From the NCBI GenBank assembly GCA_009192285.1, contig WBVU01000003.1:3441973-3505972 (forward strand): a stretch of 64,000 nt of DNA, read 5' to 3'. This document shows positions 3,620 through 63,069 of this stretch, in pieces; positions within the stretch are counted from its first letter, which is position 1; every line of letters starts with the position of its first letter. The notes under the pieces are model-generated. The model was not told where the DNA came from. It saw only the letters and a program-made list of their open reading frames with translations, and did no database searches. A program made the translations under genes and the position numbers. Source of the stretch: Morchella semilibera. Taxonomy: Eukaryota > Ascomycota > Pezizomycetes > Pezizales > Morchellaceae.

Positions 3620-5520
3620 GGGTAGTTCAGAAAAAAACGTGGTGGTGATATCCTGCAATGGAATGTTTTCTTCCCTTCTTCTTCCCTTCTCTTGCTGACG
3701 GGGGTGGGGGGAAAAGGGAGTTAAATGTAGGGGGGCAGAATAAGTATAAAATATGAGAGAGAAAGGATGTAGACAACGGAGATATGTAAGTAGGTAAACG
3801 TAGGCAGTAATATATTAGAGTGAAGTAGTGGGCGTAGAAGGAGGCCTATCCTTAATTCACCCATTGGAGGAAGTCTCTTCCAAGTCTTTTGTGGATCCTT
3901 TTTCCTATAATTGCTTTCTGCCCCCCCCCCCCCCCGCGCGCGCGCTGGAAATCACATCTTAAGGGTAATTATCATTACGCATTACCTATATCATTCGCTA
4001 GAGTAGTACTGCAATAGCATTGCGCATGCGTTTATACGCGGCTCAGAGTAGTACTACATACATGTACTAGACCTCGCTCGCTTATGATTATTGCAAGCAT
4101 CAAAACAGCAGCGAGGATACAGTTTAAGTACGTGCCAGAAAAAAATAACGCAGAAAAGAGGCAAGGCAACAGATTAGGAACCTTCTTGGCCAATAGTTCA
4201 TAGGGGCTGGGGGCTGGAGCAATCGATATTGTCTGCAGGACAACGGTCGATTGTAATGCACAGGCCGTTATTAAAGTATGGCAACGAATAGATGGGTATC
4301 GTAACTCTTATTCCTTCAAACCTCAAACTAGCTTGCCATGGAGAACGTTTGGTCAGAGGAGGAAGGAGGAGCTGAGGGTGTGCCGGAAGATACCTACGAG
4401 AAATAAAATGCTGCTGGGGCACTCAAATCCCCGGCTATTCCATGGTAAACCCTGAAAGTCAAATATAGTTAGCCCGCCAATGATATGCTGTCAGGTTTCT
4501 AGGTTCAGGGAGCGGCGCGACGATCACAAATCGATCTGCCGAATAGTAGAGCACTACGGACGAAAACCCGAAACCCTGTCACCATACACTCCTCGCAGCT
4601 AGCCAAACCAAGGGGAGATTATATGTGCCTGCCTATGTGCCCACCAGTTGACTTTGGCGGCGCAAGCATCTCGATGAGCATCACTTAATTTTTTTTTCTT
4701 TTGAGCAATTTTAGGACTGCAAGTTAAACCGTTATCTGCCTATCCATATAATGTACCTACTCTACATTCATGCACACCATAGAGTAAGGAGTAGGGAAGC
4801 TGATCATATGTTTGATTAACTTCCCATCAATCCTTGAAATGGGCCGAGGATAGTTTTTTGTCATGCTAGAAGAATTTCTTTACCTCAGCTTCGTTGTGGT
4901 CTCCCCTCATTCTATTATCCCCTCTCCGCCTACTCTCCTTGCCATAAGTTTGTAGATCAAGGGGTCGTCCGGACAGATATTTGTTGTGTAGTAAGGGGGG
5001 GGGGGTGTAAAAGTCTAGGTTGGGGAGTTGGAATGTTCTGCTGCTGATTATATGATGCGCACCTGTCACGCTTCATTCGTTTCCAAACCCAGTGGTTCCT
5101 ACTCGAGATATTTGGGGTCCCAACCTTTTAAGTATTAAGCACCGCCCTGCCGGGTCGTCCACCCCAGCTATTTGTTGCGGTTTCTTTTCTTCTCTAACTC
5201 TTTCTCATTTTCTGCCATGTTGGATGGGACAGATTTCGAATTTAGAAAGTGAAAAAAAAATTTACCGAACCCCGGATCAAGCAAACATCACCCGGGAGCA
5301 CTCGCGTCATGCAATAGAGTGACCGATAATCCGAGACAGACCGTTGCCCCTTAGCCTTGTCTAAGGCTACTATTATCTCGCGCTAGTTTAAGATCAGTGA
5401 ATTTCCGAGTCCCGTTTCCAAGAAGTCAGCGAGAAAGAAGCACCATTGATATATAGCAACATCCACGATATTTTCTTTGAAATCTCACAATCAGATCTAT
5501 AGTCATCTTTTCATCAAACC
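3620..5520. other. Intergenic, divergent promoter region
   Basis: This separates the MFS gene (minus) and the rhodopsin-domain gene (plus), so it must hold both promoters. It contains a C run followed by alternating CG near 3930-3950, a G run near 4996, and one TACATGTA at 4059. No coding exon is seen. Confidence 0.55.
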
Positions 5521-7045
5521 ATGCAGTGGGTCCACAACCTGGAGCCGGGCATTGTGTCCCAGGCCCCCATGATTATTCCGGTCTGCGTGGTTCTTACAAT
5601 ACTTGCCGTTACAGCAACACTTCTGCGGTGCTATGTGAGGCTGTACATGTTGAAGACTTTTGGAGCTGATGACTGGGTTATCGTTTTCTCTGTGGTTAGT
5701 TAACATTAAGGTAACCGCAATTCAGATATGTTTGTGCTAACTTGCTTTTCCATGTAGATTTGTAGTATCATTTACAATGCCCTCACCATTGAACGTATGT
5801 ATATGAAGGATCTTCATCATGAATCACTCGGGTCTGACAAACAACGATAGAGACACGATGGGGATTGGGCCTTGATCTAAAGTACAGACCGAAAGTGAAT
5901 GCAAACAAATATTCAGAAGTATGTTTGCTACCAGAAAACTGCGTTGAGTTAGGACTGATAGGCTGTTCATTAGGTCAATTTTGCCGGGCGGCCATTTTAC
6001 ATGCTCGGTATCACGGGATTCAAAGTATCGCTGTGCCTGGCATACATCAGACTTGTGAACAAGCAGAAGACTTATAGACGAATTACCTGGTGTATTCTCT
6101 ATAGCTGTGTTTTGTCCCACATCGGTGGCATTCTTGTCTTGATGTTCCAATGCAAACCCGTGAGTACCGAACGGCCGCGCGGCGGTCCACCCAGACCATT
6201 GATCAGGATGATTACTGACCATCTTTTGTAGGTGCAAAAATCGTGGGCTCCTGCAACAAAGGGTACCTGTCTTCCTAACGATATCACATTCTATGTGCTT
6301 GCAGGTATGTATTGGCCCTCGTATACCTACATGGCGCAGGTTCTCACCCATTGCAGCAAACACCATCTTCTTCGACATCTGTGTCATCATCCTTCCAATT
6401 CCCATTTTTCTCCGAACGCAGATTGCGAATAGGAAGAAAGTAAGGCAATCTATTTTATCAACGCATGCTGCGGATTCATCTATTAACGCCGATTCCAGGT
6501 GGCCTTGATTGGCCTATTTGCTCTCTTTAGCTTCACCACAATTTGTTCTATCATGCGGATGGTCCAGATCATAACCATTGCAAAGAACGGAAACTCCACG
6601 ATGCTTGTACTCTGGGGCACAATCGAGATGAACGTCGGGGTAAGTCCAATCTGAATCACTTAAGTGCTTACGGGCACAAAGAGGCACAGTTAAAGTCAAA
6701 ACACTAATCCCGTTTCCCCACACATAGATCACGACGACCTGCATTCCAACGCTGGCCCCGTTCTTCAAGTATTTTTCTGAGCGAAGCCAGATCTCACACA
6801 AGCCCTCATCTCTCGGTTATGTCTCAAATAACTCCCATCGCTCGAAACGTACCATGGAGCTTAGCTTCATCCGCGAGCAGAAGCGCTCGGGAGCCTCAGC
6901 TTACTGCGCCCACACCGGAAGTACCAGTCGTGATTGCGACAGTGAGGAGAATATCCTGGCGGTGACCCCGGAGGCTCACCATCGGTTAGATGGGATTCAG
7001 ATGAAAAAGGATTTCCATGTAGAGATTTCTAGTGCGCACTCTTAA
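5521..7045 (+). CDS. Fungal rhodopsin-domain (PTH11-like) integral membrane protein
   Basis: Predicted 359-aa seven-helix plasma-membrane protein of the Pezizomycotina rhodopsin-domain family (Fung_rhodopsin, related to SAT20/PTH11-like receptors). Members are thought to sense external signals; no ligand can be given. Eight exons: 5521-5694, 5758-5794, 5851-5918, 5974-6159, 6232-6304, 6357-6439, 6499-6639, 6728-7045. All introns are GT-AG, 52-88 bp, and total 1080 coding bases close in frame. Family hallmarks: an N-terminal helix ending in RCYVR, then FGADDWVIVFS, the TRWGLGLD loop, FYMLGITGFKVSLCLAY, an extracellular loop with a Cys (KGTCLP), ICVIILPIPIFLRTQI, LIGLFALFSFTTICSIMRM, and ITTTCIPTLAPFF as helix 7. 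The cytoplasmic tail (about 100 aa) is Ser/Lys-rich and carries a basic RSKR patch. The start lies right after a TC-rich leader. Confidence 0.9.
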
Positions 7046-9705
7046 TGGCGACCACCGCGGGTTATTCCCTGTGATTTCTTTTGTTTCTTCCCAGCCAGCC
7101 CAAGGCAAAAATGTATATTAATACCCCCCCAATTCTCTTTTGTCAGATTATCATTATTGTTTATGTAGTGTATGAATCAGTGGGGCGGAAGCAGGAAAGG
7201 CCTCTAATATTAAAGAGATATGGCTCGCCCGTTATGACTTTTTAACTTCAAAGGTTTGTTCGATCTTTCTTCTGACTTGCATGTGCACTTACTTGCGATC
7301 GATCCTCACCCTCCTAATTCGCCTAGGTGAGTAGGCGGATAGTTCCTTACTGGGTGGGTGCTGTCGGCCTATTTGTTACTCGGTCAGATTGTTTAATCTT
7401 TTCGAAAAGCAAAGCCAGCGAGGTGGCCAGTACTAGTAGGGTGTTCTCTTTATTTGAAAACTCATCATGTCACAACTGTCGCACTCGGGAAGAGCGCCAT
7501 ACTGGAACCGAGTGCATGTTTCGGTTTGCACTCTTATGATCTTCATGATCGCACATATATGTTCTACCATCCAATGTGGGTAAATTTTAAGATTAAGGTG
7601 GTCATGAGCCACCTGCCGAGTGGAGTGATCTCCCGTCGGCCGGGCCAAGATGACACAATTAACTTGCACCTCTTACGGGCCCGGTATTTAAAACTCTCGG
7701 TGAGTTCTGCATGCGGTACGACGAGTCATTTTCGATGTTGAATAAGCAATTAACAGTGGCTTTCCAATTCCAGTTTCGCGGGTCTAGGGGCAGAAGATGG
7801 GAGGATAAAAAATTCTCCGGAAGGGCACTTTAACCGGCTATATATTATTCTCTACCAATTTAGCCGCGGAAGATGCAGAAGTAGCCGCACACTTCGAGTA
7901 TGTATATTAGGGTACAACGTGTCTGCGGTCGCAACCTCTTTACAATTTACTCTAGGTATGTACCTACATCTTCCCTATTTCTAAAATCTAGCGTTCCCGC
8001 CCCTAGACCACGTTAAAAGGAGGCGTCCAGGAAACCCGGTCAGCTGAAGACGCCACCACTAAAGCTTATGTTTTCATGGGAAAGGGTGGTAATTGGTAAC
8101 TGGATTGGTGGAGTCGTGACTGTTGATCCTAGCCCAAATCTGTCAACCGAGTGACCAATCATGAGTCTCGGCAAGAGATCAGATCAGTGGACGACAGGGT
8201 CAACGGCTTGAGGGCACGTACGTACTCGATACGACACTTTCTCCCTTCCCATTTATCTCAATATCCCTTCCTTCTAGATAGGCAGCTGCTAAGGATCTTA
8301 CGATTCCCACAGGCACTGGGTGAACTAGACCGATCGCGATCGGCGGTTCGGTTTTAGCTGAGCTTATTGACTATAAGCGACCAATTGGAGATACGCGCTG
8401 GTGAGAGGAATGTCCGTGCGAAAGCGCGACCAATGAGCCTTGGGAGGTTTATCATACCCCTTCCTGACCGTTGGGATATTTACGCACGGCCTATCAAGTG
8501 GGATAAGAGTAGTTTGTTTGGGGAAACAACATGTGCTGTTGATACCGAACGACAGGATGCGCTCTCATCTCTGCGGAATTGAAGGAATCTCGGGTGGAAC
8601 CAGTTGGATTTCTCACTCGCTTGAGATGAATGCATACATCGTCATAAGCTTCCTGTACTCTTGTGGCTGCACCCTCCAACCGACTAGGGCTTCCTGGATT
8701 TGTCCATTTTGACACCCTGTCCAGGAGTTACTTGTCGAAGTTCATGGTTGGTTACTCGGCTCTCGGGCTATTGACAAAGTTGATTTGTAGCCAGTCAGTG
8801 CTGGGTAGATGTCGTTGCATGGGTTTCTTTTGGGGGGCCGGCGAAGATTCATCTTAACACATTAGGATCAGCATTAGTGAATCTTTCTGGAGTACTTCCT
8901 TATTAACTAGGTTGATTGTTAATTGTTTGATTTTGTCACACACGCGCCCGGAAGTCCTTTAAAACTTCGCTTATTTGAAACGGCCTCACCTACTCACACC
9001 AAATCACTGCTGTCCAGCGGACCAAAGACTGTGGGTTGGATCTGTTCCAGTGTGGGCAGTCTTTAACTCGCATTTGTCTCTGGACCATGTGTTCTGAGGA
9101 TGGGGTGTGGGTGGCATGGAAGTTCAGAATACATGTAGATTAGGACACAGTAATACTTGCCAGGCTGTCAATACCATGTTATAAAAATCCCCTCGCAAGG
9201 CAGTGTTCGCTGCGGCGGGAGGACCTGCCTAAGAAACTACATACTTCTGAAGACGAGTGATGCTTTATGATCACATCACCCAAAGTTATATTCCCATTCT
9301 CTGTTAGCGTGACTATTTCTGATACAATCGAGTAGATCCCTTATCTCATTGCCCACCCTGACTAGACAATTATTATTATGATACGCTATTTGGGAGATTG
9401 TTGTGTGCGTTGCATACATGTATATTGGGCATCAATTGAGAAATTGGTTTCTTTGCACATGCAATTACAAAGTACATACATACATGTACATACCCTAAGC
9501 TCGTTCCCAGCCCTCATACAGAGAACAGCACGGCTCTTAGGGACGGGTACGGGACTACATGTACCCGTGTTTTCTTGTAATAACTATAAAAACTAACTTT
9601 AAAGTTTGGGGGTGTGCATGTGCGCCATTCTCTCCAACCTCACCTCTATCCCCACCAACATCACTCACCGAAAAATCACTTCCCCCAACACTACATAGCG
9701 GTCCA
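7046..9705. other. Gene-free stretch
   Basis: No exon recognised. It holds a perfect 14-bp palindrome (CCGATCGCGATCGG, 8330-8343) and the first cluster of TACATGTA octamers (9130, 9415, 9481, 9556). Several overlapping short open frames around 8.15-8.86 kb on both strands look like chance. Confidence 0.55.
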
Positions 9706-18152: not shown

Positions 18153-18173
18153 GCCCTTGGAGGGGACCTGATC

Positions 18174-19304: not shown

Positions 19305-19664
19305 TACCCAAGGACAATAATTAGATGGTTATACACAAATAATTTAACAACAAGATACACGCATGCGACTTTTGTTATTTGACTTTTGGAGAGGATGAAG
19401 TAGGAAGTTTGAGATTTGATTGATAACCTAGCTACAGGACTATGCACAGTGTTAATAAAGTATACTATATCCTTATGTGATTACATATATACCAAACAGT
19501 CCTAGCTAACTACATGTAGGCACTTTTACAGACTTCTAGATACCCCTGGGGTACATCGATTTGTATGGTGACGCGGTAGTCTATCCTGGGTACGGGGATA
19601 AGAAATGATAATTCTGCATGTTTTGGGCTCAAAAAGTGAAGTTATCTTTCGTACTGGATAATAC

Positions 19665-20616: not shown

Positions 20617-21191
20617 ACTACATGTACTCAACATGGCTGCGACCTTCTCGTGCCTCGGAAGTCCAAAATCAACAACGACATCCATGGTGCACTCGAGTGA
20701 TAAGATATGACCTTGCTAAGACGCTGAAAATCCATTTACCGAGTACCTGGTACCTGAGTTACTTAGCCAAAATACATGTACCGTCTACGGAAGGCGAATA
20801 CCGGCCAAAAGGATCGGGACGACGGCACGATGACACTTAATTATGGAAACTGGAGTCGACGACTTCAATGAGAATTTATTAAATATACTTTTAGAGTGCT
20901 TGCCACATCATGAAATTACATCCACATGCGACCACGGTAGTTCTAACGAGAGCCACGTAAGCCATGGATAGAATACAGCTACAAACAACCAGAGCAGCAT
21001 TTGGCTAGGGTTTATGCATATTTCGTTAGAATAATTAGCAGGCCCATACGAATTTACCTTGCCATAATCAACGGTGCTGTGTCTGCAATGCCAAGCATTC
21101 AATCACTCTCTACTAATTTACCCAAATAGGCTAGCCCAGAGGGTCGTCTAATATTAGCAGAACAAAGCGGCCTAAAGAAGGGTTCAAAATA
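20617..21191. other. Gene-free stretch
   Basis: No gene. TACATGTA occurs at 20619 (directly outside the family-B end) and 20773. Confidence 0.5.
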
Positions 21192-23216: not shown

Positions 23217-24147
23217 TACATACTGCACACCCTGGGAGTCTGGTGTCTTGCTGCAATCTTCGGGTATCGCAAAGAAATAGAGCGCAGCCCGTATACACAG
23301 CTTCATGTGCTTGTGGCTGGCACTGGTGCTGTGATTAAGCCGTTGCAGAGTAAACAGGAAGATCCGACCTCAAGCTATAGATTGCAGTAACTGGTCAAAT
23401 ACAGAAGTGGTGACATAGGAGATAAACGGGAAATGGCGTCAATGTGATACTGTAGGTTGGATGCCGGGGAAGTGTGGAGGGTAAAGCGCTGTTTTTTTTG
23501 TGCTGGTATCGCAGGTGACTCGAGCACGAAAAGAGATATGTATAATAAGGAATTGATGTTGGCGGTGTTGGTGAACGTTCATTCGTGTTACCGCTCTTGA
23601 TCCGAGTGATTGGTGCCCTAGGGATAGTGGTGTGAACTGCGAGTTGAACGCGTGGTAATTGGAAGTAATGAGGAAAGTCTATTGCATACTTCTGTCTTCT
23701 GTGAGATTGGTGTTGCGGTTGCAGTTGCAATCGAAATCGAAGCTGAATTTGTTGCGATACCGTCATCAATCTAATCTGCAGAATACTGGACACCTTGATG
23801 GATTAAACAAAAAAAATAGAAAAAGTGAAATGAAGATTGGATCATAAGAAATCACTCGATATGGAATTATGGGTGCTCACGCAGCAATAAGCCAATGAAA
23901 AATACATAGATTGGTCTCAAAGTACCCGGGTGTTGTTGGGTATAGATACATACATTTATTTCCAGGACTTACTTATGCATGTAAATATTACATGTACATG
24001 TACCTCCATAGAGGCCGCGGCCGCGGCTTGATACATTGAATATCTCTCGAGCTCGTAATCAGCAACTACTAGGATGCACAATGCCTTCCTCACAGATTAT
24101 GCAACCGTCCGTATCAAGCACTCCATCCCCTTCTCTCTCCCCATCCA
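23217..24147. other. Gene-free stretch
   Basis: A minus-strand Gln/His-rich frame at 23395-23760 lacks an obvious start, splice sites or recognisable domain; I do not call it. Overlapping TACATGTA octamers lie at 23989 and 23995, and a 14-bp palindrome GCCGCGGCCGCGGC at 24014-24027. Confidence 0.45.
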
Positions 24148-24387: not shown

Positions 24388-26212
24388 CTCGTGGGTGTGT
24401 ATTGATTTTATTCGGAGTAAGTGAAGTGGTTCTGGAGTAGCCAATATGTAATTTGCAAGACTTTTTAGACTTAACGTTCTTAGTAAAGCTTGGGGGCGGA
24501 GGGGGAGGGAGGGGCGTAGAATGAGTTGAATCTGGCGATGCGTCGTATAAGTGCATTGAATGCGCACGAAGTACAATGCTTGATACCGCGATATGTTTAT
24601 GCATGTATAGAGTAGTAGAGGCGCCAAATACATAAATACATGTTCATGGACGTAAGACAGTTAATGAAGTTTGGCTATCGAGTTTAAGCTAACTTATTTA
24701 CACCACGAAGGATATATTTACGCTATTGGATTGTAGGTACATGTACTTAACGATTGTAAACAAATTGATACTACATGTACTTACTATGTACGGATCTAGA
24801 GATACATGGGTCGGAACACTTTTCAAACTACATGTATATAGTACTTTAACGCTGCATAATACATGTATGCAGATACTACAATCTCGAGCTTGCCTAATAT
24901 ATACGGCAATGCACTAAGAGTTTTTCACTCCTTCAGTGCATAGGAAGACTTGTTCTATTTTGACATCAGACTCTATTTTCCGTCTTAGTTTAATACATGT
25001 ATGTAGATACCTTTTTGGCCCTAGAGTTTGAGATGTGTGCCATATTTGTGTGCACAAGAAAAATTGTATCATAGGGCTATATGCGCTCATTTAAGTACAT
25101 GTAGTTTCTTAATAACGAAACAAACTAAGTGCAACGTTGCTGCTCCTTACGTCTAGCAACGCCTCGACACCCCGTGGATCCTACAGCCCTACATTTGAGT
25201 CCACGTCTCCATCCAACTCTGAAAATTCGAAGGTCTATTTTTTATCACCCTATGGTTCAATTAAGAAGATTTATCACTATCGCTTTTTACTTCTCACTCT
25301 CATTGAAACTCCTTGTCCGATTCTCCCACGTAACCTACCTGACCCAAACGAGTTCCTCAAAGTCTGAATTCATCCCACGGCATTAACACCCGAGTCTTCG
25401 AAAAAGGTCAGTGTCTTGTATTTATGAACATGATTGGCCAGTAAATTTGGCAGAATTCTAGACTTTCCATATTGATGATACATTGACAAATAGAATCATC
25501 AACTATTTGACTATTCATCATTCTTTGACTAACAGAATCATGACCCTTCTCGAGTAGGTTTAAACGGCATAAAATACTAGCAACAATACCCACAATCCAG
25601 GCCCTTACTCTGATGGAGTACTGAGTTCTAAATTCATTGGTCAAATCCCAGTAGCCACTTGCTCGAAACAATCGGCATTCCTTCCCAGTCCAAACCGCGC
25701 CACTTGGTTTGGGGTCAGAATCTAGATGTTTCTTTATTTCTGAGAATTAGTTGGAGAGGTTTTCTGCAATGCGTAAAGCTCAAATGAGATGACTGATTAG
25801 TTCAACGATTGACCAAAGCATGATATGTTACTGTCTCATACCCGGCCGGTGGGGTGTAACCTTTTCATGGGGAAAAGAAAATATTCCGCCAGGTACCAGG
25901 TAAGGCTGAAATCCGGGCCTTGTGAGTCAGTGTTTCGGCCTCCCTCGCAAAAATCTTCACCGCTGACCGAACACAGAGACTAGGCGTTCGGGTCTAGCCC
26001 GAGCCATGAGGTTCGGTGAACATGAGCAAGGCCCAGACCACTTTTCAGCAGTTGAATTTCGGAGGAGCAGAAGATATCACAAAACATCGTACCTATCATA
26101 AAAAAGAAAAATAAGGAGAAAAGCGCCGGGCAAATCAGAATGCTCTGGTTGGGTTATTATTTACGCAAGGGATCTTACTGTTGGTATGTAGTACAGACAA
26201 GTAGAACGAGTA
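24388..26212. other. Gene-free stretch rich in TACATGTA
   Basis: Six TACATGTA octamers lie within 24738-25103. A basic, hydrophobic frame at 25129-25386 has no family features. No gene called. Confidence 0.5.
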
Positions 26213-26350: not shown

Positions 26351-27059
26351 CTCCCGTGTTTTTTTATTGAAAATAAAATACTCTAGAATAGAGGATAACA
26401 TTTATTGTTAGTCACTCGTGCAAGATAAGAAAGATCTAATCACTTGGCAGCCATCCCTCCGGTCGCTGCCAACTACATGTATCTAGGTGGGTCGAGGTCC
26501 ACCATAGGGCCCCTCGATGGCCCGCCATCTCCTCATAATCCTTGACCAACACCTCGCCCATTGTATGGGTGGTTAGGTTAATGGAACCGCTTCAGCTCCA
26601 CTTGAACACAGTCGGGGCGCCACCCCTCATTGACACTTTCCTTGGGAGCACATGTATTGAGTAACGTTCTACCGTCCATAATCGTTTTTTACTGGAAAGA
26701 TTGCTTAAATACATTCTGACGACCACAAATCCATTAGCCGTTATACTATTCCCGGTGAGTGACCCTAAAGCACTCGGAGGTTAGATACGATATCCGTTGG
26801 AAATCCCATGCGTGGTTGTCCCACAATCGGATGTCTTTCCTAATGTCCGTATATGGGTTTCACTCCCTAAAGAATACCTAATTTTCCTTATATATATACA
26901 TATCTAAGTATTCTAACATAAGTATGGCTCTAAACTCTAGATCAATCACCCTAGATCGTATGTGGGACAAAGAAAATGGATACTTAACTGGGAGTACATC
27001 AATCATTCTTTCTGCCCAAGTACTGGTTGAGACTACTTTTAGATAGTGTAATATAACTT
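26351..27059. other. Gene-free stretch
   Basis: No exon seen. Possibly the interior of the non-autonomous Helitron ending at 26323. TACATGTA at 26474. Confidence 0.4.
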
Positions 27060-32201: not shown

Positions 32202-32729
32202 TTAAAAGTTTGGGTAATATCCTACGTTTTGTCGTTGTCTAGTTAGGTTTGATACAGTGTTCGACAGGGATCGCGGGTTGGTGGGTGGTGGATGATGATG
32301 AGGCTCGAGGTGCGTGGTGTAGGTGATCTATCGGGTTTCGATAACAACCGGAATTTCAAAAGTGGTGTTTGGGTGCGTCGACTGGAGCAACGCGCAACGG
32401 TATATGACAGCTTGGCAAACGAGAAATCACGGGTTAGTACCTGCGTCGTGTAACGTATAAGTATGGATTAGATCTTTTGATAATCAACGCAATGTTTTAC
32501 TACATGTAGCTGACTGTGCATGTGCTGTACGTATATATACATGTACCGATTGATTTATAAATTGATTCATTCTCTGTACAAGATGTACCGTGAAAAGGCC
32601 CATTGATGGACAAATCACTAGACATGCACCTGCACGTACGTATCCTTGTATACATGTAAGTACATAGGTTCTCGCCCCAGCCCCCAGATCAAGACGCTGG
32701 GGACTTTTGACCCTCGGCCTCATCATCTA
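32202..32729. other. Gene-free stretch 5' of the tRNA
   Basis: No gene. TACATGTA at 32501, 32538 and 32651, within a run of TAC/GTA words. Confidence 0.5.
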
Positions 32730-33378: not shown

Positions 33379-33690
33379 CTAGAGCTTGGGGGCAGGCTTT
33401 CGTTGTAACTCCATGTAGTAATCACCCTTTGTGAAGAGGTAAGCTCCCCACCAGTAACGAAAGCTCATTGGCAGGGAATAAAGGCGTTCAGAGTGCAGTA
33501 TGTATCGACGTGTGCTGGTGAGTAATTTGCGAATGTTCGATCTTCTCATCACGTCCGAAAGGTCTTCGACCCCCAAAAACGTGGGTATGATGTCAGCCCC
33601 CCAAAAAACACTCGTTACAAAACCCAATAGATCTACCCTCCCTACATACCAAATAAGCCCAAAATCTACATGTACTTTGCATATAACCAT
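33379..33690 (-). CDS. Possible small protein, unrecognised
   Basis: A 103-aa frame from an ATG at 33690. The C-terminal half is protein-like: basic helix (MRRSNIRKLLTSTRRYI), then MSFRYWWGAYLF and a charged end (QRKPAPKL). This composition would suit a small mitochondrial or membrane-associated protein, but I cannot name a family. It may be the last exon of a longer gene: the N-terminal 30 residues look less convincing and could be intron or leader. It could also be chance. Confidence 0.3.
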   Translation of the reverse strand: MVICKVHVDFGLIWYVGRVDLLGFVTSVFWGADIIPTFLGVEDLSDVMRRSNIRKLLTSTRRYILHSERLYSLPMSFRYWWGAYLFTKGDYYMELQRKPAPKL

Positions 33691-33699: not shown

Positions 33700-35002
33700 C
33701 AGTTAGCACTGCATGATAGTCCTCCCAACCGCCGATCACAAGCCATCACTCGACTTGGCATTTCCATACTCACTAACATCATCCACCCAAACAAAAGCAA
33801 ACTCACGGTTACTCACCGCACACCGGATCGTACGCTCCGGGCAGCACCAACCCCCGAAAAATCAATGTCTCTACTCCGATGCCAAGCCCCCTCCGTCAGA
33901 GACAAAAAAAAATAAAAAAAAACAATCGCTAGATACTGTCTCACCGCTGAACCATTCCCGCAGTCTCAAAGTCACGTGACACACCTCTATTTACTTTTTC
34001 TGGTAGGAATTAGGCGCCGGGCGTAAATTGCGATGGTGGGTTTATTGGTGCTGGGCGAATGCCGGTAGCCGTCGCACTCTTTTTTATTTTTTCTCGTCTT
34101 TTCGGTCAGGGGTTGTGACGTAGAAGAAGGGGGGGGGGAGGGAAAGGGGTGATTTGGTTGGTGTATTTTGGCGAACGCAGCAGGTGCGGTCGAAGGTCGT
34201 TTTTGGTTTTTTGGGGTATGTATCATATCATAGGGTCTGGTACGGTCGGGGAGAAGGGGACAAAGGAACGGAGGAGGAGAGATATGCGGCTGAGACAGGT
34301 ATGTGTAGGTTTACAGGCTGTCAAGCTACAATAATATATATGGCTGGAATTAAGTTTATGGACGCACACCATCAAATTATCAATCACCACAACCACCACA
34401 ACCACCACCATATGCATCACCATCACAGCAACAACAATAAAGACAACAACAATAATAACAACCAAATGAAGGCAAAACTCCTAGGCCTCAGATGGGGCGT
34501 TCGTCCCTTTGTGAAGATGAGTGTTTACGCCCGTACTCCACTCAGCCCATCGTGGCAATTGATTAATTTAACGGAGCTGCATATATACATGTAGTTTAGC
34601 TTAGCTTGTTCTTGTCCGTACAGGCGCCTTCTGAGGAGCCTAAATATACTTTTTCTCAGGTACATACCCCGTACGGGGTGTGTGTGTGGGATACCCAGGC
34701 ACACTATAATCAGGAGTCTGTAAAACATCGTGAAGATAGAATAGGGACTCGGCTATAGAGTTTCTGGAGGTTTGAAGAGGACAAAGAGAGAGAGAGAGAA
34801 TGCCCGGAACTGGACAGAGCCGCCAGAGTTTATTTAGACTTCGTATATAGTATTCCCATTATAAAGGGCGATATGTCTTCGTCCTCTCTTGACATGATCA
34901 TCACGATAATAATTACAGTCAATTCCAATTCTCCTCCTCCTCCCAAATTTCAATCTCCACATCACTCCTCTTACCCGTTAATTAGTTAATTAATCGATAA
35001 TT
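33700..35002. other. Gene-free stretch with simple repeats
   Basis: Holds poly-A near 33.9 kb, a G run near 34.13 kb, and an imperfect CAC/AAC/CAT array at 34379-34465 that yields a spurious His/Asn-rich frame. TACATGTA at 34586. The last 150 bp should contain the promoter of the next gene. Confidence 0.5.
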
Positions 35003-39814: not shown

Positions 39815-40521
39815 TGGGTAGTTGGGGCTGTAGAGAAGAGTGAGTGAGGGCAGGGGCGAAGGGCGTTGGGCGTTGGTTTTGGTTTTGGTTTTGGTTTTGG
39901 TGTTTTTTTTCCCGTGTTTTTTGGATATGGTGATAGTGGTGAGTTTTGAGGAGGGAGAGAGAGAGGAAGGGAAAGGGGGGCGGAGTGAAGTAAAGAGTAG
40001 AGTGAAGGCTGAGTGGTGAGTGATGAGGTATGATGCAGTTTGTGTGCCGCGCTGTAATTGGACGAGTACTGCCCTGAGCCAATAATGGATTCCATTCGAG
40101 CTCGGAGAATCTGATTGGGACTCGTTTCCCAACAATCCTTACTGCATTGAAATCTGAAGCAGGCCATGCATGATTCTATGATGGCCTACAGACTTCTTCT
40201 TCTTTCTTTTTTCTTTTCCGGTCTCCAAGTTCACTGCGCAGGCTGTGAATGCGTCTATAGATAGGGTCAGGTGTAATTTAGTAGTTTTACGGCCCAGGGT
40301 TAGGTGTATTTAGATCAACAACTACAATACATAGCATCATCATCATCATCATCACCATCCGAATCTAAGCTCAACCTCACAACGTTACATTCTCATCCAT
40401 TACCCTTTATTTTCAACATCCTTTCTCTCTTCTTTTCTTTCATTGTGCATATATTTTTAGGACGGTTTCATACGTTGCACAAGAGGCACAAAGTCTCAAG
40501 ACCTTGTTACGAGCTCTTCTA
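39815..40521. other. 3' flank of MNL1 with GGTTTT repeat
   Basis: A GGTTTT hexamer repeated about four to five times lies at 39875-39900; purine-rich sequence follows to about 40.0 kb. No gene. Confidence 0.6.
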
Positions 40522-40657
40522 CACGCTTACCAGCAAAAGAACCAGAAAATGCAAATACGGAACCAGGGATTATTTGTATGAGAGAACGGCGCCACTCCAT
40601 ACAAATTATCCTTGCCCTGAGCAACTGCATTTTCTGGTTCTTATGCTGGTAAGCGTG
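40522..40657. mobile_element. Foldback element with near-perfect 32-bp arms (TA-flanked)
   Basis: The left arm starts CACGCTTACCAGCAAAAGAA and the right arm, reverse complemented, starts CACGCTTACCAGCATAAGAA. The pairing runs 32 bp with one mismatch (ending GAAAATGCA). Both sides are flanked by TA, total 136 bp. It has no coding capacity. Arm identity implies recent activity. Confidence 0.85.
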
Positions 40658-41913
40658 TACAAGACAAGGCTGGTTAATTTATTCATCAAGACAAGATAAT
40701 AATATCTCGAGACCAGTTTTTCCAAGGCATTGGTCCGGCGCCAGATTACGTTCACTGTTCCTGAAAACTGCCCGGTACAACAGTGCTTGTGCTTTGGGAA
40801 ACTACATAGGATGGATTGCCTTGGTACGTGAACTATCCTTACTGAACTTTACCTCTTCCAGGCACTTTAGGAGGTCCTGAGGGTTACTGCCCCGAAATGT
40901 TCTGCAAGGTCTGACCGAGACCTTTCAAGCCTGCAACTACTCTGAGAGGGGATGTCTCGTCAAAAGGTGGGGAGGGGGAACTGCCCTCGAAGCTCAATAA
41001 CTATTCCTACTAAAAAAGTTTCGACCTGTGCTACGGAGCACGCAATAAGATGGGTTGATATTAAGAAACAGTTAGTAGAGTGTTCATTCGCAAATCTTTC
41101 TGAATGCGTACACGACGGACAGACTCGATCGGCGTTCTGAAACCCAGCTGATTTCATTGCGGCCTTGGCTGGTATCACATACAATTGCGTATCTCTATAT
41201 CTTATGAAAACTTATATATTTTAAGGAAATTACACCCAAAAAGAACCGATACACCCCATAAACTATACCTACCTGCTGTACTTTAATGCATCCCAACTAT
41301 CATTATCGTACAAAGACCATCTCGGCAAATGTTTAAAACACTCAATTACACATTCGCCATTAGATACTAAACTACATTTATATCTAGAGGCCTTTTCTGA
41401 CGGCACATTTTTTGCTCGGTATCGATCACAAGACGTCTTGGCTGATGTTTATCGAACAACTCCAAAAAGTCATGGGGACGTACCGGCTATATTAAAGAAA
41501 ATGCCTACGCGCGAGGTCCGCGGCAGGCTCAATCCCCATATTCGTCTACACTTGATCCGGTTGTCATGAACCATCACTCGCCACCCTCTTTTCCGTCTGT
41601 TAGCGGGGGGAGAGAGGGCTCGAATATGCCGCTCATGAAGGAAAGAAAAGAAAAGAAAGAGAGGGCCCATCTCCACCTCGCTTACGCCTGACCGCCTGTC
41701 ATGTCAAGGCAAAAAAAAAAAAAAAAAATTACCCGGAAGTCAGCTCCGGTACGATCCCATGAACCATGTCCTCGCTCCCGATTCCCAATCGGTCCTCCGA
41801 GCTGAAAGTGTTCATTTGGGACCGTGGTGGCTTGTTTTATTATGAGGTAACATTATGAAAAACGTTTATTGGAGGTTTCCCTAACTGATATTGTGTTCAA
41901 TTACTTACCCACA
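40658..41913. other. Gene-free stretch
   Basis: Nothing recognised; an A run of 18 at about 41710-41727. Short frames on both strands at 40.95-41.18 kb overlap and are not called. Confidence 0.45.
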
Positions 41914-52473: not shown

Positions 52474-55400
52474 TACATGTATGTATGTACACTTAGCTAC
52501 AGTACCACCGGATTCTACCTCTCCATCTCCCTCTCTCTCTCCCCCCCCCTGCTATTTGCCTTTGCCTTTCTTTTTTTCTCCCTTTGCCCTGCGTACTCAC
52601 CCGCCCGTCTGCCTGCCGGCACACAATTGGGGTGCTCAGGGTGGCTGCAGTAGATGAAGAATAGGGCAGATCAGGATCAGGGAATAAGAAAAGCTAAGGG
52701 GGAACAGTACAGAGGCTATAGCAGAAACGGCATCAAAGTAGATCAATTTATTGTGCAAAAACCACCACCACTACCACCACCGCCACCCCGTTCCGATTAT
52801 ACATTACCAGCTCTGAAAACAATGGTGCTACTGTTACTGATCCAGGCACGGCGGATATTGAACCCGTTACGAACGCAAGTATATGTGCGTACCTGGGGTT
52901 AATGACAGGCCAACCACACTCCCACTTTTCTAATCCATCTTCATCTTCCCCGTTGACCTGTCGAGACTTGTATTCTCCTGCAAGTTACCTGCCTGGAACA
53001 GCAAATTTCACTTCCAAGTCAGGTGAAACTTCATGCTGCTTCTCCGGCCGCCGGTATCATGTAATGTAGGTAAAGCAGTGGAGTACGAACTCCGAAAACA
53101 AGTTTTTCTTTTTTCTTTTTTGTTTTTTTCCTTTTTCCTTTTTTTTTTTTGTTTCTAACGTACCTCAACGGTATGTGGCAGTTCAAAACATCCGTGAAAT
53201 TCTAGATCCCTCATCTCGATAGATCACAAGGGTTGCATCCATGCCCTCACTCCCTTTATTCTCAATATTAGGGTTTCCTTTTTTCCTTTCTTTTTTCGAT
53301 TCCACTTTTCGTTTCGTTTCTTTTTTTCTCTCCCTCTTTTTTCTCTTCTTTCCTTTTTTTTCCCTGCTTTTCCTCTATTTTATCATTTCCCCTTTCCCTC
53401 TAAATAAAAAAATCTCATAAGCCTAGATTTCAATTTCTAGGAGGGAAAGATATAGCGAAGGCGGAGTGTGCGTGCGTGCGTGTGTGTGTATTGCGTGCGT
53501 GCTCTCACTTCCTTTGAATACATGTAGCTAAACTATGTAGCTAGACTGAAATAGAGTAAGAGCCCCATGAGGGTCAGCATTTACATGTGGCACGTGTCCT
53601 TGATCCTATAAGATCGATTTCTTATGCCTAATCGCTGATCATGGATCGAGAGAAAGTATGGTTTTCTTCCGCTGAATGTCTCTACATACCCTATTGGCGT
53701 ATCTGTACCTTGCCTAACGAATGTTATTCTATTTCTTGAGATGGAGTGTGTTTGCGAAGATGAGGGGTATCTGATTCGGTCGAGACATCCCCCTAATCCG
53801 ATAGGGACTATATCAGATATAGTAGGAATTCTGAACAGAGAAGGCAAAGCTATAATAGAGGGTACACCCATATATTACTATATGATATCACAACGGTCTT
53901 TTCGGTATCGGTAATGGAACCGCGCGCGATAATGAACCAAACCCATGTTTATCCCCCCCCCATTACTGCAGCCCTGATTTGGTCTTGATTCGCCAAAAAC
54001 CTGGGTCTTGTTAGCTAGCATTTCCCTTGGTATGTAATCTAGATACTTTATCTGCAAGCAAATTTTTTGCTAGTCAGTCTTTTTTTTTTTTTTCCCTCTC
54101 CTTTGCAGTTAGGTGTGGCCAGCCAGTCAGTCAGTCAGAAGCCTAGCTCCGTCGATCTCGAGATCACAACCGCCCGCTTACTCCGCGCGAATCGCCCCGA
54201 CACTAATACTGCAGCGCAGTGCAGTAATTACCAACAAAACTAGGAAGCAACAACTTACATAAGTGCGTATCTACCCCATCCTATCTCCGGATTGTCCTGC
54301 GGTCTAGTTTCTGGTGCTCTTCGGATAAGGTAGTGAGAAGAGGTTTCTTTCCCCATTTCTGCCCTATGGAAATGATACATCGGGGCGGCAATGGCTGTCA
54401 AAGTCCTGACAATTAAACGACAGACAGAGTCTAGAAGCGCCCTAGAATCTTGAATCCTAATTGTCCCCATGTTCATCATCGCGTTCATTATCCTCGTCGT
54501 TTGACGCCATTCAATAGTCATCTAGGAACATGGAAGTATGTTTCTAAAGCTCTAGAAGTTTGAGGATTTCATTCTCTCGTATCCATTCATATAACCTTCT
54601 CCTTACCATATCCTTCCCTATCCTACCCTGCTCCGCCATACTACCTGACATGTCACGTTTCAGCCTGACAGACATCAACTCCTCAGTCGGAGATCTGATC
54701 GATGGATTGGTTGGAAGTTACGACATTAGCCCTTCGGCCTTTTTCTTCTTCAAACATCTAAGAGTTTCTTTCATTCCCATTCGCTTATGTATCTCTCTAT
54801 GTAGACATTAATAGGTGGTAACTGATTAGTAGAATTAGTAGAAATCCTTGAACCGATCTCACTCACCATAAACGTTTTATCCCTTTTGTACTGTTACCAT
54901 ATATGCCTGTACCATGTCAGGATCATTGACAGCAAAGGGATTGATCATGTCTGCCATGGTCTGCCATGTTACCCACCACCGGACTCAGCAGGCCATAATA
55001 GTTAGTTATTCTTATTCCATCCATATGCAATGCACCCTTATCCCCGTCCACTTTTTCTTACCCCTTTCCCATGTCAATGTCGTACGTTTAACCTCCGGCC
55101 ATAAAATCCTGGTAACCTCCAATCATTGATACTACGATGAAGACCGAAGTAGAACCAGAGGACCGAGGAGAAACCCGTTGGCCAAATTATTGCCTTTTAC
55201 CGGAGGAAGATATGGGGGCGCAGGCTTAGGGCCGATGGGCATCTAGAGTACGTATGTATAAAGTGGAGCATCTCTCACTCGGACTTTGTTTCGCCGGGGG
55301 GGTTGGAATGGCAGGCACCACCTACACCCAGAACGCCGAGATGTAGGGTAGATAAGTGAGTGGAGGTGGTGTTGATAAGCCGGGCCAGCCCTGCAGTAGC

Positions 55401-58400: not shown

Positions 58401-60494
58401 CTTAATAAAGTCTTGATATATGATATTCAAGCAGATGATAATCTACCGGATCTTCATTGTGTCATAGAGTAAGAGGCGTGAGGGTCAACCAGCGCAGCCA
58501 GTGTCCAAGAATTTGGTAAATAATTGTCTTGCTTGCTTCGCCGCAGTCTGAGAAGGAAAGAAGGTGCAAGTAGTTAGGTAAGTACATAAAGACCTCCGGG
58601 TTTGCGGTTACCGACTAACACTAAACTCTCCAGTAGTCTATAAGAGTCTAGTATGTGGGGAGTTGCGTCTGCTATCTCCGCAGCTCATATACATATGTGC
58701 AGACATGTACCCTGTTTTGTAATTTCATATTGGGTGCGTAATTGCAGAAACAGCTCCGCCCGTTCGTCATTTGTGTAACAAAGAGCTACCCATAAGCGAA
58801 GTGGGCAAAAACGTGTCGCGCGCCATGCTTCCCTCCCGAGGGAGATGTTGATTCACGTTGAGTGGTTCATCCATATCTAGGGCTTCGGTAGGAATAGCGA
58901 TCCATTCGTCCTAACACGTTAATTGTCGGCTCAAATTCTGGTTTCCTTCACGTCGCCTGAAACAATGCTTGAATGCATGAGACATTGTTAATCTACCGAA
59001 CTTGTCTTTTTAGGTCTCAACGTCTGCCTTGAAAGTAAGGAATTACCTTACTACCGGTGTAGTTCTGAATTATGAAGGTTAAGATTTCTACCATTTGTGC
59101 AACGGCCATCTAAAATCGGAAACTACTACTATGTCATGCCAGATATATGCATATAATGAAGCGTTAAAGCCCTAGGTCTAATAATTAGTAGCGGGACTTG
59201 ATATTATGAACTTGAGTCAGTCCTTACGTACGATTTTTCAAACCAATATCTTGGAGGCCAAAGATGTTCAGAATTTAAGGAGAGATTTTAGGTTCGCATC
59301 TTGTTCTCGGGGCCGGTTGATCTGCCACTAGTAAATCCGGTAGTTAGCCTAGACCTCGACGCAAAAGCTGTGGTGGTTCATACTGAAACGACCATAACTT
59401 CTTGAGCTCGAGAGTTGGAGGTGGATCCGTCCAGAGCAAGGAACCCTCGGACGGGTAATCAATTACGTAGGGTAAACCTTGGTTTGTTGTTACTTTTTTT
59501 CACGTTTGTACTGTAACTATCTTAGCGTATTTCATGTCTCAGTAGCAGGTATGAGCAAGGATAAATCGGCTGAAGGCATGCACACAGCTTTCAGACTAAG
59601 TTAGTGCTTGTGATAAAAAACGAACTGAACGTTGCCGATGACTGTTTTGATGATAAAGATGAAGATGATGGTGGATATACTGCCGCCTCGTTATATAATA
59701 TCATAGAGCGCGAGATATCGGATGAAAAACATAATTGTGTGGGGTTGCTTCGACCATGAATAGGGCTGGAAACTGGCTCGGGTGCATGCATGCAGGCACG
59801 GATTTAATGCAGCAGCATGATGCACGGATGGAACCTGGGTATCGGGAGCATGCATCCTATCATGTCAAAGACCTTTTACAAGGATACCCAAGAGAGAAGG
59901 AAAACTTTACCTGCAAGATCCTGGCTTGGCAGTTAACTAGATACATACATGTACTCAAATCCCCGTTTAGTTCAAATAAGTCTTCCCCCCCTTATTTGGG
60001 GGGGGGGGGGAGAACGTACATTGATCGACATACACCTTTTATTCATTCGCCAGTGACGTCTTTTAAAATAAACCCGTAATGGTATGCCCTGAGGATCGTT
60101 CGAGGAGGTATTTCCCTTTTGGTAGTCGTATTCGCGTTTCTTGCCTTGTAACTCAGCGGCGGAGTAGTTGGGACTCTGTTTACTCATATCCTCGATTCGT
60201 TGAGTTGCATATGCATATATGGGGGGCGTAAAAATGATACGGTGCTTGGGTATTGTTGAGGTTCTGGTAAGTGTGGGGGAGTGAAATACGATGCCGATGC
60301 TGTCTTAGGGATAAAAGAATTACTACATGTAGATGCACATATCCATGGCTAGCGTGCTTTTAGTTACCACATGTAATGACAGATATAAGAAGTTGAGCTT
60401 TCATGTACGTGTCAAATAGTATGTACATGTATTAGTGTAACCTACATACATGTACTAGTACATGTACATATACCATCAACGGTTAACCTTGATA
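52474..60494. other. Gene desert with low-complexity tracts
   Basis: About 8 kb without a convincing exon. Contents: CT tracts near 52.53 kb, T/C-rich blocks at 53.1-53.4 kb, a GTGCGT run near 53.47 kb, CAGTCAGT near 54.12 kb, GACC/GACT repeats near 56.44-56.47 kb, and complementary C and G runs near 59.99-60.01 kb. TACATGTA at 52474, 53519, 59946, 60324, 60424, 60447 and 60459. Confidence 0.45.
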
Positions 60495-60605: not shown

Positions 60606-61901
60606 TATGTAAATATTGGTGTTGGTGTGTTTGTGTGGCGGGATTCCCTAGAATTGGATCCATCCTGTATCGCGTGCATGTACATGTATATACCGTCCAA
60701 TACTTGTATACATGTATGTATACTATCATGAATTTATACATGGGGAATTGAACATAAATGTACATACGGATCCGAGTACAACCATTAACCAAGTTGACGT
60801 ATTGCTTGTATGTACTTCGATGGCCGTATAACTACATGTATTTTCATATACGAGGTATCCATTCCAAGGCGATGTGAGCAATATTATTTGCAATAACAGA
60901 TGGTTTAGCTTGTTTTACCCTAGTTTGTGAATTGATTCTCTAGTAACCTAATTACAGATCATTGGTCTCAGCGCCCAAAGTCTTATATCCAGCATCCAAT
61001 CGGGCCCAGAACTCTTCATTCGCACCGTGTGAGCTTCCACGCAACGAACACCGAGTGGCGGTACTATGAAAGACATAGTGGTCTATAATATATACATGTA
61101 TCTAGATAGGATATTATTCCCGGATGAGATCGTGTATGCACAGAGACGGAGACGAGACAGATCATCCATGCGTTACTTTGATTTTCCTTGTTACTACATG
61201 TATATGCATATGCCATATTCCCACAACGGTCATCAAGAGAAAAAGGTCGAAAACGGCCTTGTACCATGGCCAGGGGTCGAGCTTTTCAGCCGTACGGCCC
61301 GTACCGCAGTACCTACATGTAAACTAAGGGGTCCGATAACTGTCACCATGTGATTTTGCATGTGCATGAGAACAAATCTATGGAAAAGTTTTCCGCACGC
61401 ACTCGACAAAACCCATCGATCAAGCTTGCTGATTACCATGAAACTCAGTATTTCCTGGCCTGGTGAAATCTGCAAATTCGGGACCCCCCAGATTTGGTGA
61501 AGTTGTTGCCTTGAAGGAAAGTGCAACGGCCAATAACAAGAAAATTTAGCAATGAGAACGGTCAAATCTCACCCCTTCTAGGCAACGAAACCGCCAAACC
61601 TGGGGTGCCCGGATCTGCTTGTATCACCAGGCCAGGGGCTAGTGTAAGAGCCCGAGGAGGCCCGTGTATGGAGAAATATACATATATGACGCATATCCAT
61701 ATATATATGTGCAATATTATGACCAGCTAATTACTAGATATAGATGCTAATACCGAATATATACAAGTACTCACTCTGCTGGAGTTAAAATGCGCCTACT
61801 TGATATTTTCACAAGTTTTAGGGTCTTTCCCACCAAATAATGCTTAATAGGCGTTGATCGGCGGCGTTTTAATTTTGGCACAGGCATAATTATATATAAA
61901 C
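60606..61901. other. Gene-free stretch with dense TACATGTA
   Basis: Six TACATGTA octamers (60681, 60709, 60833, 61093, 61194, 61314) lie among many GTAC/CATG words. No gene. Confidence 0.5.
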
Positions 61902-61904: not shown

Positions 61905-62027
61905 CCGCCGAAAAATTGGCTATGCATATGAGGTCGAAATTACTATAAGCAGACCTGATCTACGCCCTTCAACATTGTGAGGAGGTAATCCCTAGCCGGG
62001 GATAGCCAATTTTTCGAGCTTTTACGG
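61905..62027. mobile_element. Inverted-repeat element (TA-flanked)
   Basis: CCG-CCGAAAAATTGGCTAT at the left pairs with the reverse complement at the right (CCGTAAAAGCTCGAAAAATT, then GGCTAT). There is an indel between the terminal CCG and the 15-bp perfect core CGAAAAATTGGCTAT. Both sides are flanked by TA. AGCCAATTTTTCG recurs at about 63963-63975. Confidence 0.6.
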
Positions 62028-63069
62028 TATATCAGAAGAGGGGTGTTCCAGCGGCGGAGTGCTAAAATATGAACCAAAGTTAGCGAAGCGAGATTAGGGG
62101 TGCATTTCAATGTCGGGCATGCATATGAGATGGTATTAGGAAAGGTTGATTCGGTATGATCCCAGCCATTTCTGACGTGTGCATACATGTAGATAGAAGT
62201 AGGGAATCTATCCGGTTCATATGTAAATGTGTGTGTGTGGGGGGGGGGGGGGAGGGGAATCAATCGATCGTTACTCGGTAAACTAACGTACATGCGTTAT
62301 GTATATAATTTGGGGGCCTTCATGTGATTCATGGGAGTTAAAGCGTTATGAAATATGCCTTCTTGCCTTCAGGCTATTAACCCGCGCCCAGGGTATCTTT
62401 TATGGAAGCTTCATTAGACCCTGGAAATGAGACAAACGTTCGTGGAAGCGCATTTGGAATCTCCGAGAAGGAAACAGCCGCGGCAACTCTTCCGCTTTGG
62501 TCAAGACATTTAAGTCTATAAGGTGGGGGTAAGATCTGCTATTGTTATTGCTATAGCTAAGTACTTGGTAGTTATGCTGTCGATTGGGATGGCAATTTAC
62601 CTACTGTATATTATAAAATGCCAAGGCTCCGACTCATCTCTCTGTATGGTAGCTAACCGTGGGGAAGGAGTGCGTTATTATTATTTCATAGGCCAGCAGC
62701 TCAGAAGTTGAGACTAGACTCTGATACCGAGTGATATTTCATGCAGGAGCCTCCAGCACAAAAAGTACGTGTGTCGCGGCTATAGACAATTGGAAGATGA
62801 GGCTGGGTTTTAGGAAACATGATTTATTTCAATCTATAACCGAGACCCGAGAGATTGAGCGGGTGGTTCTTTTTGTCAGTTTTCTACGATTTGTGATCCT
62901 CATAGACAAAGCTACATACTCTCTAGATCTTATCTTCTCATGGCGGCCACCGGTCCGTGTTCAACATTCCTGGTCGCAAGCCAACACCTTGCCCTGGCCA
63001 TGGTATCTCAATCGAGGTCATGATCACTTAAAAACTTGAAGAGGGAAAAGCAGAGAGGTTACTTCAAAT
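62028..63069. other. Gene-free stretch
   Basis: A GT/G run at about 62228-62255 and TACATGTA at 62194. The frames at 62.5-63.04 kb have no domain features and are not called. Confidence 0.45.

What the first reader, a model, noticed from the sequence alone, without database searches (positions are those of the whole stretch)
4059..62201. TACATGTA palindrome is hugely over-represented and clustered in non-coding DNA
I count 36 copies, starting at 4059, 9130, 9415, 9481, 9556, 19511, 20619, 20773, 23989, 23995, 24738, 24772, 24829, 24860, 24994, 25096, 26474, 32501, 32538, 32651, 33667, 34586, 52474, 53519, 59946, 60324, 60424, 60447, 60459, 60681, 60709, 60833, 61093, 61194, 61314, 62194. Base composition predicts about one. 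None lies in the coding exons or in the retrotransposon, and none lies between 34.6 and 52.4 kb although much of that is non-coding. Flanking bases differ between copies, so it is the octamer itself that recurs. Options: excision footprints (next finding), a binding site for a DNA-binding protein, or a decayed TACA/GTAC microsatellite.
Basis: partly seen in the sequence, partly recalled or inferred. Interest (0 to 1): 0.72.

Follow-up and report, generated by a model that had tools for sequence, protein, structure and literature searches.

The report
Genome-wide scars of jumping genes
A fungal genome carries about 22,000 copies of one eight-letter DNA palindrome, and the evidence suggests that most are small scars left when cut-and-paste jumping genes moved out, a record usually thought too faint to read.

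Summary
The count is right: 36 TACATGTA in the window against 1.1 expected. Genome-wide there are 22,206 copies in 56.8 Mb, roughly 10-30 times expectation. It is the commonest 8-mer palindrome in a 214 kb sample; 72 of 73 sample copies lie in unique noncoding DNA; 0 of 36 lie in tandem arrays.

Best reading: excision footprints of cut-and-paste transposons that target TA and have CA...TG ends. A 2-nt staggered cut leaves TA-CA-TG-TA. Support: (i) the one-ended products TACATA/TATGTA are in 1.9-fold excess, only with TA at both ends; (ii) they share TACATGTA's flanking signature on both sides, unlike 17 control words; (iii) much of that signature (A at -3, T at -4, T avoided at -1) recurs at insertion sites of MITEs in this genome, including the family of a 140-bp MITE inside the window; (iv) one-mismatch copies exceed expectation only as transitions, as if decaying.

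Main rival: a protein-binding site, as this octamer is read in Phytophthora promoters. Not shown: an empty allele, or these transposases' cut. Several side tests failed or were mixed. Confidence 0.65.

The parts
40520..40659 (.). 140-bp MITE, TA at both outer ends plus inverted ends CA...TG (TIR starts CACGCTTACCAGCA)
   Evidence: TA-flanked inverted repeat, 19 of 20 end positions matching; 42 perfect 16-base TIR ends genome-wide, 11 two-ended elements of 108-141 bp counting this one; target flanks resemble those of TACATGTA
40520..40535 (+). left end of the MITE: TA + CACGCTTACCAGCA
40644..40659 (-). right end of the MITE: inverted copy of the left end, closing TA
4059..4066 (.). TACATGTA
9130..9137 (.). 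TACATGTA
9415..9422 (.). TACATGTA
9481..9488 (.). TACATGTA
9556..9563 (.). TACATGTA
19511..19518 (.). TACATGTA
20619..20626 (.). TACATGTA
20773..20780 (.). TACATGTA
23989..24002 (.). two overlapping copies (23989, 23995): TACATGTACATGTA, possible nested footprint
   Evidence: 501 such words genome-wide
24738..24745 (.). TACATGTA (cluster 24.7-25.1 kb)
24772..24779 (.). TACATGTA
24829..24836 (.). TACATGTA
24860..24867 (.). TACATGTA
24994..25001 (.). TACATGTA
25096..25103 (.). TACATGTA
26474..26481 (.). TACATGTA
32501..32508 (.). TACATGTA
32538..32545 (.). TACATGTA
32651..32658 (.). TACATGTA
33667..33674 (.). TACATGTA
34586..34593 (.). TACATGTA
52474..52481 (.). TACATGTA
53519..53526 (.). TACATGTA
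59946..59953 (.). TACATGTA (cluster 59.9-61.3 kb)
60324..60331 (.). TACATGTA
60424..60431 (.). TACATGTA
60447..60454 (.). TACATGTA
60459..60466 (.). TACATGTA
60681..60688 (.). TACATGTA
60709..60716 (.). TACATGTA
60833..60840 (.). TACATGTA
61093..61100 (.). TACATGTA
61195..61202 (.). TACATGTA (reader gave 61194)
61314..61321 (.). TACATGTA
62184..62191 (.). TACATGTA (reader gave 62194)

Best explanation
Most TACATGTA copies are excision footprints. Cut-and-paste transposons of the IS630-Tc1-mariner superfamily, perhaps mostly short non-autonomous ones (MITEs), insert at a TA, duplicate it, and begin and end with CA...TG. If the transposase cuts the non-transferred strand 2 nt inside each end, excision leaves TACA on one side and TGTA on the other. 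Joining both gives TA-CA-TG-TA; losing one overhang gives TACATA or TATGTA. Shown here: the word, its abundance, the co-enriched partial words with the same two-sided flanks, transposons with CA...TG ends flanked by TA, and insertion-site preferences that resemble those flanks. Inferred: the 2-nt cut, the end-joining, which family is the main source, and that the set is fairly young (decayed copies are few). Copies would pile up where insertion is frequent and tolerated, which would account for the clusters and the lack of copies in exons.
For: (1) All eight positions matter: 72 perfect copies in noncoding sample DNA against 3.2-3.5 expected; the 16 transversion neighbours total 48 against 48; only the 8 transition neighbours exceed expectation, 51 against 24-25, Poisson p about 2e-6. 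(2) One-ended products TACATA/TATGTA: 209 observed, 109 expected; TACATC 0.83, TACATG 1.07, TACATT 0.94, AACATA 0.82, CACATA 0.99, GACATA 0.93 of expectation, so both TA ends are needed (bootstrap 1.89, 1.64-2.21). By z, TACATA ranks 1 of 10 TA-N2-TA words and TACATGTA 1 of 136 TA-N4-TA words. (3) 198 TACATA/TATGTA sites away from TACATGTA score high on its flank profile on both sides (z 4.0, 3.1); 0 of 17 control words do, though TACAGTA (2.9), TAAGTA (2.5) and TACCTA (2.2) do on one side. (4) Window MITE family, 11 elements, 22 flanks: no T at -1, A .59 at -3, T .59 at -4, TA at -4 in 10 of 22, z 4.0; in 4 of 11 the target TA itself belongs to a TACATGTA, TACATA or TATGTA. Tc1-like elements and MITEs, 13 elements, 26 flanks: A .58 at -3, T .58 at -4, z 4.3. 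(5) Of 9 transposase-bearing loci with drawn ends (L027, L029, L030, L034-L037, L042, L045), 8 begin CAG, L035 does not; the flanking TA was a search condition, the first letters were not. Two later families were sought with CA-starting patterns, so their CA ends are by construction. (6) L042 and L077 sit in a TA of a TACATGTA, L062 between two copies. (7) Published: Tc1/mariner ends are cut 2-3 nt inside (PMC2170065, passage); taCATGta is a rare Tc1 footprint (PMC3520976, passage).
Against: No occupied-against-empty pair was found: of 140 4-bp and 115 6-bp indels (not independent) in alignments of repeats held here, 0 carry a footprint; repeats hold almost no copies, so power is low. No element family matches at every flank position: the Tc1-like family has G .96 at -1, the window MITE family T .68 at -2, pogo-type ends match only at -1/-2 (z 2.8; -3/-4 z -0.6; all five positions z 0.9). 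Genome-wide one-mismatch copies are fewer than for the backwards control (38,153 against 41,979); in the sample 33 of 188 such control words overlap a real copy and 0 of 110 of the test words do, so the control is inflated by about a fifth; after that correction an excess of very roughly 6,000 remains (my arithmetic). Under steady neutral decay about as many one-mismatch as perfect copies are expected; the sample shows about 0.4 as many. Only 1 copy in 32 kb of repeats, and that one in an element with 86%-identical LTRs. TACATA and TACATGTA densities in 1-kb bins correlate weakly (rho 0.14, p 0.11). Two palindromic controls, TAGCTA and TAATTA, reach 1.7 and overlap TACATA's interval. Pairs 10 bp apart are over-represented (606 of 2,666 at gaps 0-30). 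Of 8 two-ended pogo-type MITEs, 6 show no copy in the roughly 30-bp flanks fetched; L056 was fetched wider because copies were known there.
Confidence: 0.65

Rival explanations
1. TACATGTA is the binding site of an abundant homodimeric DNA-binding protein, for example an Iroquois/TALE-type homeodomain or a chromatin-organising protein; copies are kept by selection and paired sites 10 bp apart lie on one face of the helix.
For: Same octamer is motif-1 upstream of 12,070 Phytophthora genes and correlates with up-regulation at 2-4 days of infection; the authors reject a footprint and point to Irx-type KN homeodomains (PMC3520976, passages). M93 in P. infestans occurs 4,150 times in promoters, p 1e-26 in hyphal promoters (PMC3597505, passages). 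Gap-2 pairs 606 against about 69 per other gap. One Homeobox_KN match in this genome. Few decayed copies. 55 of 70 copies are nearest a predicted 5' end, against 68% of the noncoding bases.
Against: Half-site TACAT is not enriched without a closing TA; TACATA shares flanks on both sides; flanks resemble transposon insertion sites; no pile-up next to predicted gene starts (3 copies in 9.1 kb within 500 bp of 5' ends, 36 in 43.0 kb beyond 4 kb; crude gene calls); the one-mismatch excess is transitions only, not tolerated positions.
Confidence: 0.22
2. A highly iterated palindrome like cyanobacterial HIP1: the word is spread or maintained by a mutational, repair or methylation process, without transposons.
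For: Sharp, palindromic, very abundant word; HIP1 itself is recalled.
Against: Does not predict TACATA/TATGTA with the same flanks, nor the likeness to insertion sites; 0 copies in 45.6 kb of unique predicted coding DNA, whereas HIP1 is common in genes (recalled).
Confidence: 0.09
3. Decayed TACA/GTAC microsatellite or part of one long dispersed repeat.
For: TA is enriched at -4 and -8 of copies, so some copies lie in TANN-rich stretches; TACATACATA is in excess.
Against: 0 of 36 copies in tandem arrays; flanks differ; flank profile unchanged for isolated copies (109 flanks); only 1 of 73 sample copies in repeats.
Confidence: 0.03

Closest known systems
Tc1 (C. elegans) excision footprint taCATGta
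   Same: Same eight letters; TA target; 2-nt terminal remains CA and TG
   Different: There called a rare product (passage); here 22,206 copies of the word, the commonest 8-mer palindrome of the sample
Phytophthora motif-1 / M93 TACATGTA
   Same: Same octamer, very abundant upstream of genes, unrelated lineage
   Different: Read as a transcription-factor site and tied to expression; partial words, target flanks and indels are not mentioned in the passages I saw
HIP1 of cyanobacteria (recalled)
   Same: Sharp, palindromic, genome-wide iterated octamer
   Different: Here lacking in predicted exons and accompanied by partial words and transposon-like flanks
Tc1/pogo-type MITEs (naming recalled)
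   Same: TA at both ends, short inverted ends, about 90-190 bp, dispersed
   Different: Here proposed as footprint makers on a genome-wide scale

Membership tests
Tc1/mariner-type excision footprint | Word is TA + terminal bases of the element + TA | tested here: met
   8 of 9 transposase-bearing loci with drawn ends begin CAG next to TA (TA was a search condition, CA was not); the window MITE begins CAC
Tc1/mariner-type excision footprint | One-ended products TACATA/TATGTA co-occur | tested here: met
   1.91 of expectation, both TA ends needed
Tc1/mariner-type excision footprint | Flanks match the elements' target preference | tested here: inconclusive
   -3/-4 and avoidance of T at -1 match in two families (z 4.0-4.3), but -1 in the Tc1-like family and -2 in the window MITE family differ; pogo-type ends match only at -1/-2
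Tc1/mariner-type excision footprint | Empty allele: TA in a sister copy, TACATGTA in the other | tested here: inconclusive
   0 of 255 4/6-bp indels in repeats, low power; 4 of 5 duplicated-contig stretches identical; no sister genome held
Tc1/mariner-type excision footprint | Transposase cuts 2 nt inside the ends | not testable with these tools
   needs an excision assay
Transcription-factor site (Phytophthora motif-1/M93 type) | Enriched close upstream of genes | tested here: inconclusive
   3 copies in 9.1 kb within 500 bp of predicted 5' ends (0.33 per kb), 36 in 43.0 kb beyond 4 kb (0.84 per kb); yet 55 of 70 copies nearest a 5' end against 68% of bases; gene calls crude
Transcription-factor site (Phytophthora motif-1/M93 type) | Correlates with expression; bound by a nuclear protein | not testable with these tools
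   no expression or binding data
HIP1-like iterated palindrome | Present across coding and noncoding DNA (recalled) | tested here: not met
   0 in 45.6 kb unique predicted coding, 72 in 136.4 kb unique noncoding
Microsatellite | Copies lie in tandem arrays | tested here: not met
   0 of 36 within the arrays
MITE (window 40520-40659) | Terminal inverted repeats, TA at both ends, many dispersed copies | tested here: met

The most novel reading that the evidence does not exclude
The genome preserves a countable record of some twenty thousand past excisions, so DNA-transposon traffic, usually thought nearly traceless, can be measured from one assembly; and the abundant TACATGTA 'promoter motif' of Phytophthora (with its sister TACCGGTA, also of the form TA-XY-Y'X'-TA) is at least partly the same kind of scar, later available for use as a protein-binding site.
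Probability: 0.35. Interest if true: 0.82.

Novelty: new variant of a known kind. Interest (0 to 1): 0.62.

Why it matters
One fungal study calls DNA-transposon excision footprints almost undetectable (PMC10691877, passage). If most TACATGTA are footprints, one genome gives the number, places, target taste and relative age of thousands of excision events, far more than the element ends counted here. It would also warn that an over-represented palindrome in promoters need not be a transcription-factor site, and it makes the Phytophthora reading testable by a simple count (TACATA/TATGTA with TA at both ends, and 4/6-bp indels between strains).

Tried and rejected
Haplotype comparison: contig pairs C9/C10, C12/C13, C21/C22 looked allelic, but 4 of 5 pairs of stretches were 100% identical (L016/L017 over 9,842 bp, L030/L031, L038/L039, L042/L043); the fifth, L019/L020, differs in repeat-rich DNA with 0 copies of the word on either side. 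Paralogue indel test in repeats: 0 of 255. I first took the lack of a one-mismatch excess against the backwards word as evidence for selection and a protein site; later the control proved inflated by flanks of real copies (33 of 188 words; hints), so I dropped that argument. A first match of TA at -4 to the Tc1-like family looked complete, but its G at -1 does not fit; pogo-type ends do not fit at -3/-4. Three-nt footprints TACAGTA/TACTGTA: 27 against 20.5, too weak to use. Bin correlation of TACATA with TACATGTA: not significant. Homeobox search: one match, not informative. Organism: a filamentous fungus, judged from Pfam content and my reading of the proteins; species not identified; the PDB search did not help. 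Paper searches for genome-scale footprint records or a fungal report of this octamer showed none beyond Phytophthora in what was listed; one search listed 40 of 290 papers and 40 of 51, so this is not a claim of absence from print.
Full report
OBSERVATION. Shuffles give 1.13. Genome-wide the word occurs 22,206 times in 56.76 Mb, its backwards form 3,723 times. Markov models trained on the sample predict 683-1,228; they underestimate related words up to two-fold, so I take the excess as roughly 10- to 30-fold. The sample was 15 stretches of 10 kb taken at one fixed coordinate per contig (of 17 answered; L017 and L020 dropped as partners of L016 and L019) plus the window: 214 kb, including about 4.5 kb of N, with 73 copies. 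Without the window the 150 kb hold 37 copies against 2.3 expected.

WHERE IT LIES. With a simple codon-based predictor, 1 of 73 copies overlaps predicted coding sequence, which is 29% of the sample; that one is in a retrotransposon-like repeat, L011. By class: unique noncoding 72 in 136.4 kb, unique coding 0 in 45.6 kb, repeats 1 in 32.0 kb. There is no pile-up next to predicted gene starts, though 55 of 70 copies are nearest a 5' end against 68% of noncoding bases. Copies cluster. The window's Ty3-type retrotransposon has LTRs 99.84% identical, so its lack of copies says little; the older element in L011 (LTRs 86%) has one copy in about 6.3 kb, fewer than the noncoding average would give.

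WHAT KIND OF WORD. Inverted TACA/TGTA pairs stand out only at spacing 0 (73 sites; next highest 13 at spacing 4). In noncoding DNA the 16 transversion neighbours sit at expectation (48 of 48) and the 8 transition neighbours at twice it (51 of 24-25) (p 2e-6). That looks like an exact word that decays by mutation. The ratio of excess decayed to perfect copies, about 0.4, is below the steady-state neutral value of about 1.1 (my estimate), so the set is young, still growing, or partly under selection. Genome-wide, one-mismatch copies number 38,153 against 41,979 for the backwards word. In the sample 33 of 188 of those control words, and 0 of 110 test words, overlap a real copy, so the control is too high by about a fifth; the corrected comparison leaves a modest excess, in line with 0.3-0.4.

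THE FOOTPRINT TEST. Tc1/mariner elements insert at TA and are cut 2-3 nt inside their ends (PMC2170065, passage), and non-homologous end joining leaves a footprint flanked by TA (PMC2874221, passage). Elements with CA...TG ends and a 2-nt cut should leave TACATGTA, TACATA and TATGTA. TACATA/TATGTA is in excess, 209 against 109, while words keeping only one TA end are near or below expectation; the bootstrap interval is 1.64-2.21, and two palindromic controls, TAATTA and TAGCTA, reach 1.7 and overlap it. TACATA sites away from any TACATGTA share the TACATGTA flank profile on both sides (z 4.0, 3.1; 0 of 17 control words show this on both sides, three do on one). A dimer site with separable halves would not predict a shared flank on the far side.

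THE ELEMENTS. DDE_3 and DDE_1 transposase matches number 69 and 96; calling these Tc1-like and pogo-type is recalled knowledge. Ends were sought as inverted repeats next to TA, so the TA is by construction; that 8 of 9 transposase-bearing loci begin CAG is not (L035 is the exception). The last matches best overall: T absent at -1, A .59 at -3, T .59 at -4, TA at -4 in 10 of 22, z 4.0; it differs at -2 (T .68). In 4 of its 11 elements the target TA belongs to a TACATGTA, TACATA or TATGTA, as expected if sites are reused.

SPACING. Pairs with exactly two bases between them number 606 of the 2,666 at gaps 0-30, about nine times the average of other gaps, with varied linkers. A protein array would explain this simply. 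Under the footprint reading it follows in part from the TA at -4 that the target preference brings: that TA can itself be hit. Overlapping copies (period 6) number 501, the form expected of a hit inside a footprint. I count spacing as neutral to slightly favourable for the rival.

PRIOR WORK. TACATGTA is motif-1 upstream of 12,070 Phytophthora genes; its authors name the Tc1 footprint, set it aside because of abundance and conservation, and suggest an Irx-type homeodomain (PMC3520976, passages). In P. infestans it is M93, 4,150 promoter occurrences, with a sister M94 TACCGGTA (PMC3597505, passages). M94 has the form TA-XY-Y'X'-TA that a 2-nt footprint of an element with CC...GG ends would have; that link is my inference. 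A fungal study calls DNA-transposon footprints almost undetectable (PMC10691877, passage).

VERDICT. Footprints explain more independent facts than any rival, and three of their predictions held when tested (partial words, two-sided flanks, the window MITE's target sites at most positions); others were mixed or empty (pogo-type flanks, 3-nt footprints, bin correlation, repeat indels). It remains an inference until an empty allele or an excision product is seen.

Noticed in passing
window 12577-18808: Ty3-type retrotransposon with gag, protease, RT, integrase and chromodomain matches; LTRs 99.84% identical; an in-frame stop splits the RT region.
   Followed up: partly
window 22930-23218: 289-bp TA-flanked inverted repeat (18 of 20 end positions match), possibly another MITE.
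   Followed up: no
window 19666-19822: AT-rich tandem and inverted repeats around TATATCGTCCTGTCAGGATA.
   Followed up: no
window 32109-32201: tRNA gene on the minus strand (Rfam), 300-450 bp from a trio of TACATGTA copies.
   Followed up: no
genome contigs C9/C10, C12/C13, C21/C22: Contig pairs that seem to hold the same DNA twice (4 of 5 stretches compared identical); perhaps 6 Mb of the assembly.
   Followed up: partly
L046-L054 (e.g. C2:1381144-1381254): MITE family of mostly about 103 bp sharing the TIR TACAGCGGTRGGTAA (145 ends, including longer transposase-bearing elements) with a strong G-TA-C target.
   Followed up: partly
sample noncoding DNA: TACTCTA is in two-fold excess (47 against 23.6) for no reason I found; TAGCTA and TAATTA also run at 1.7.
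   Followed up: no
sample noncoding DNA: TA dinucleotides recur at even distances, peaking at 4 (1.48) and 6 (1.25), even away from TACATGTA.
   Followed up: no
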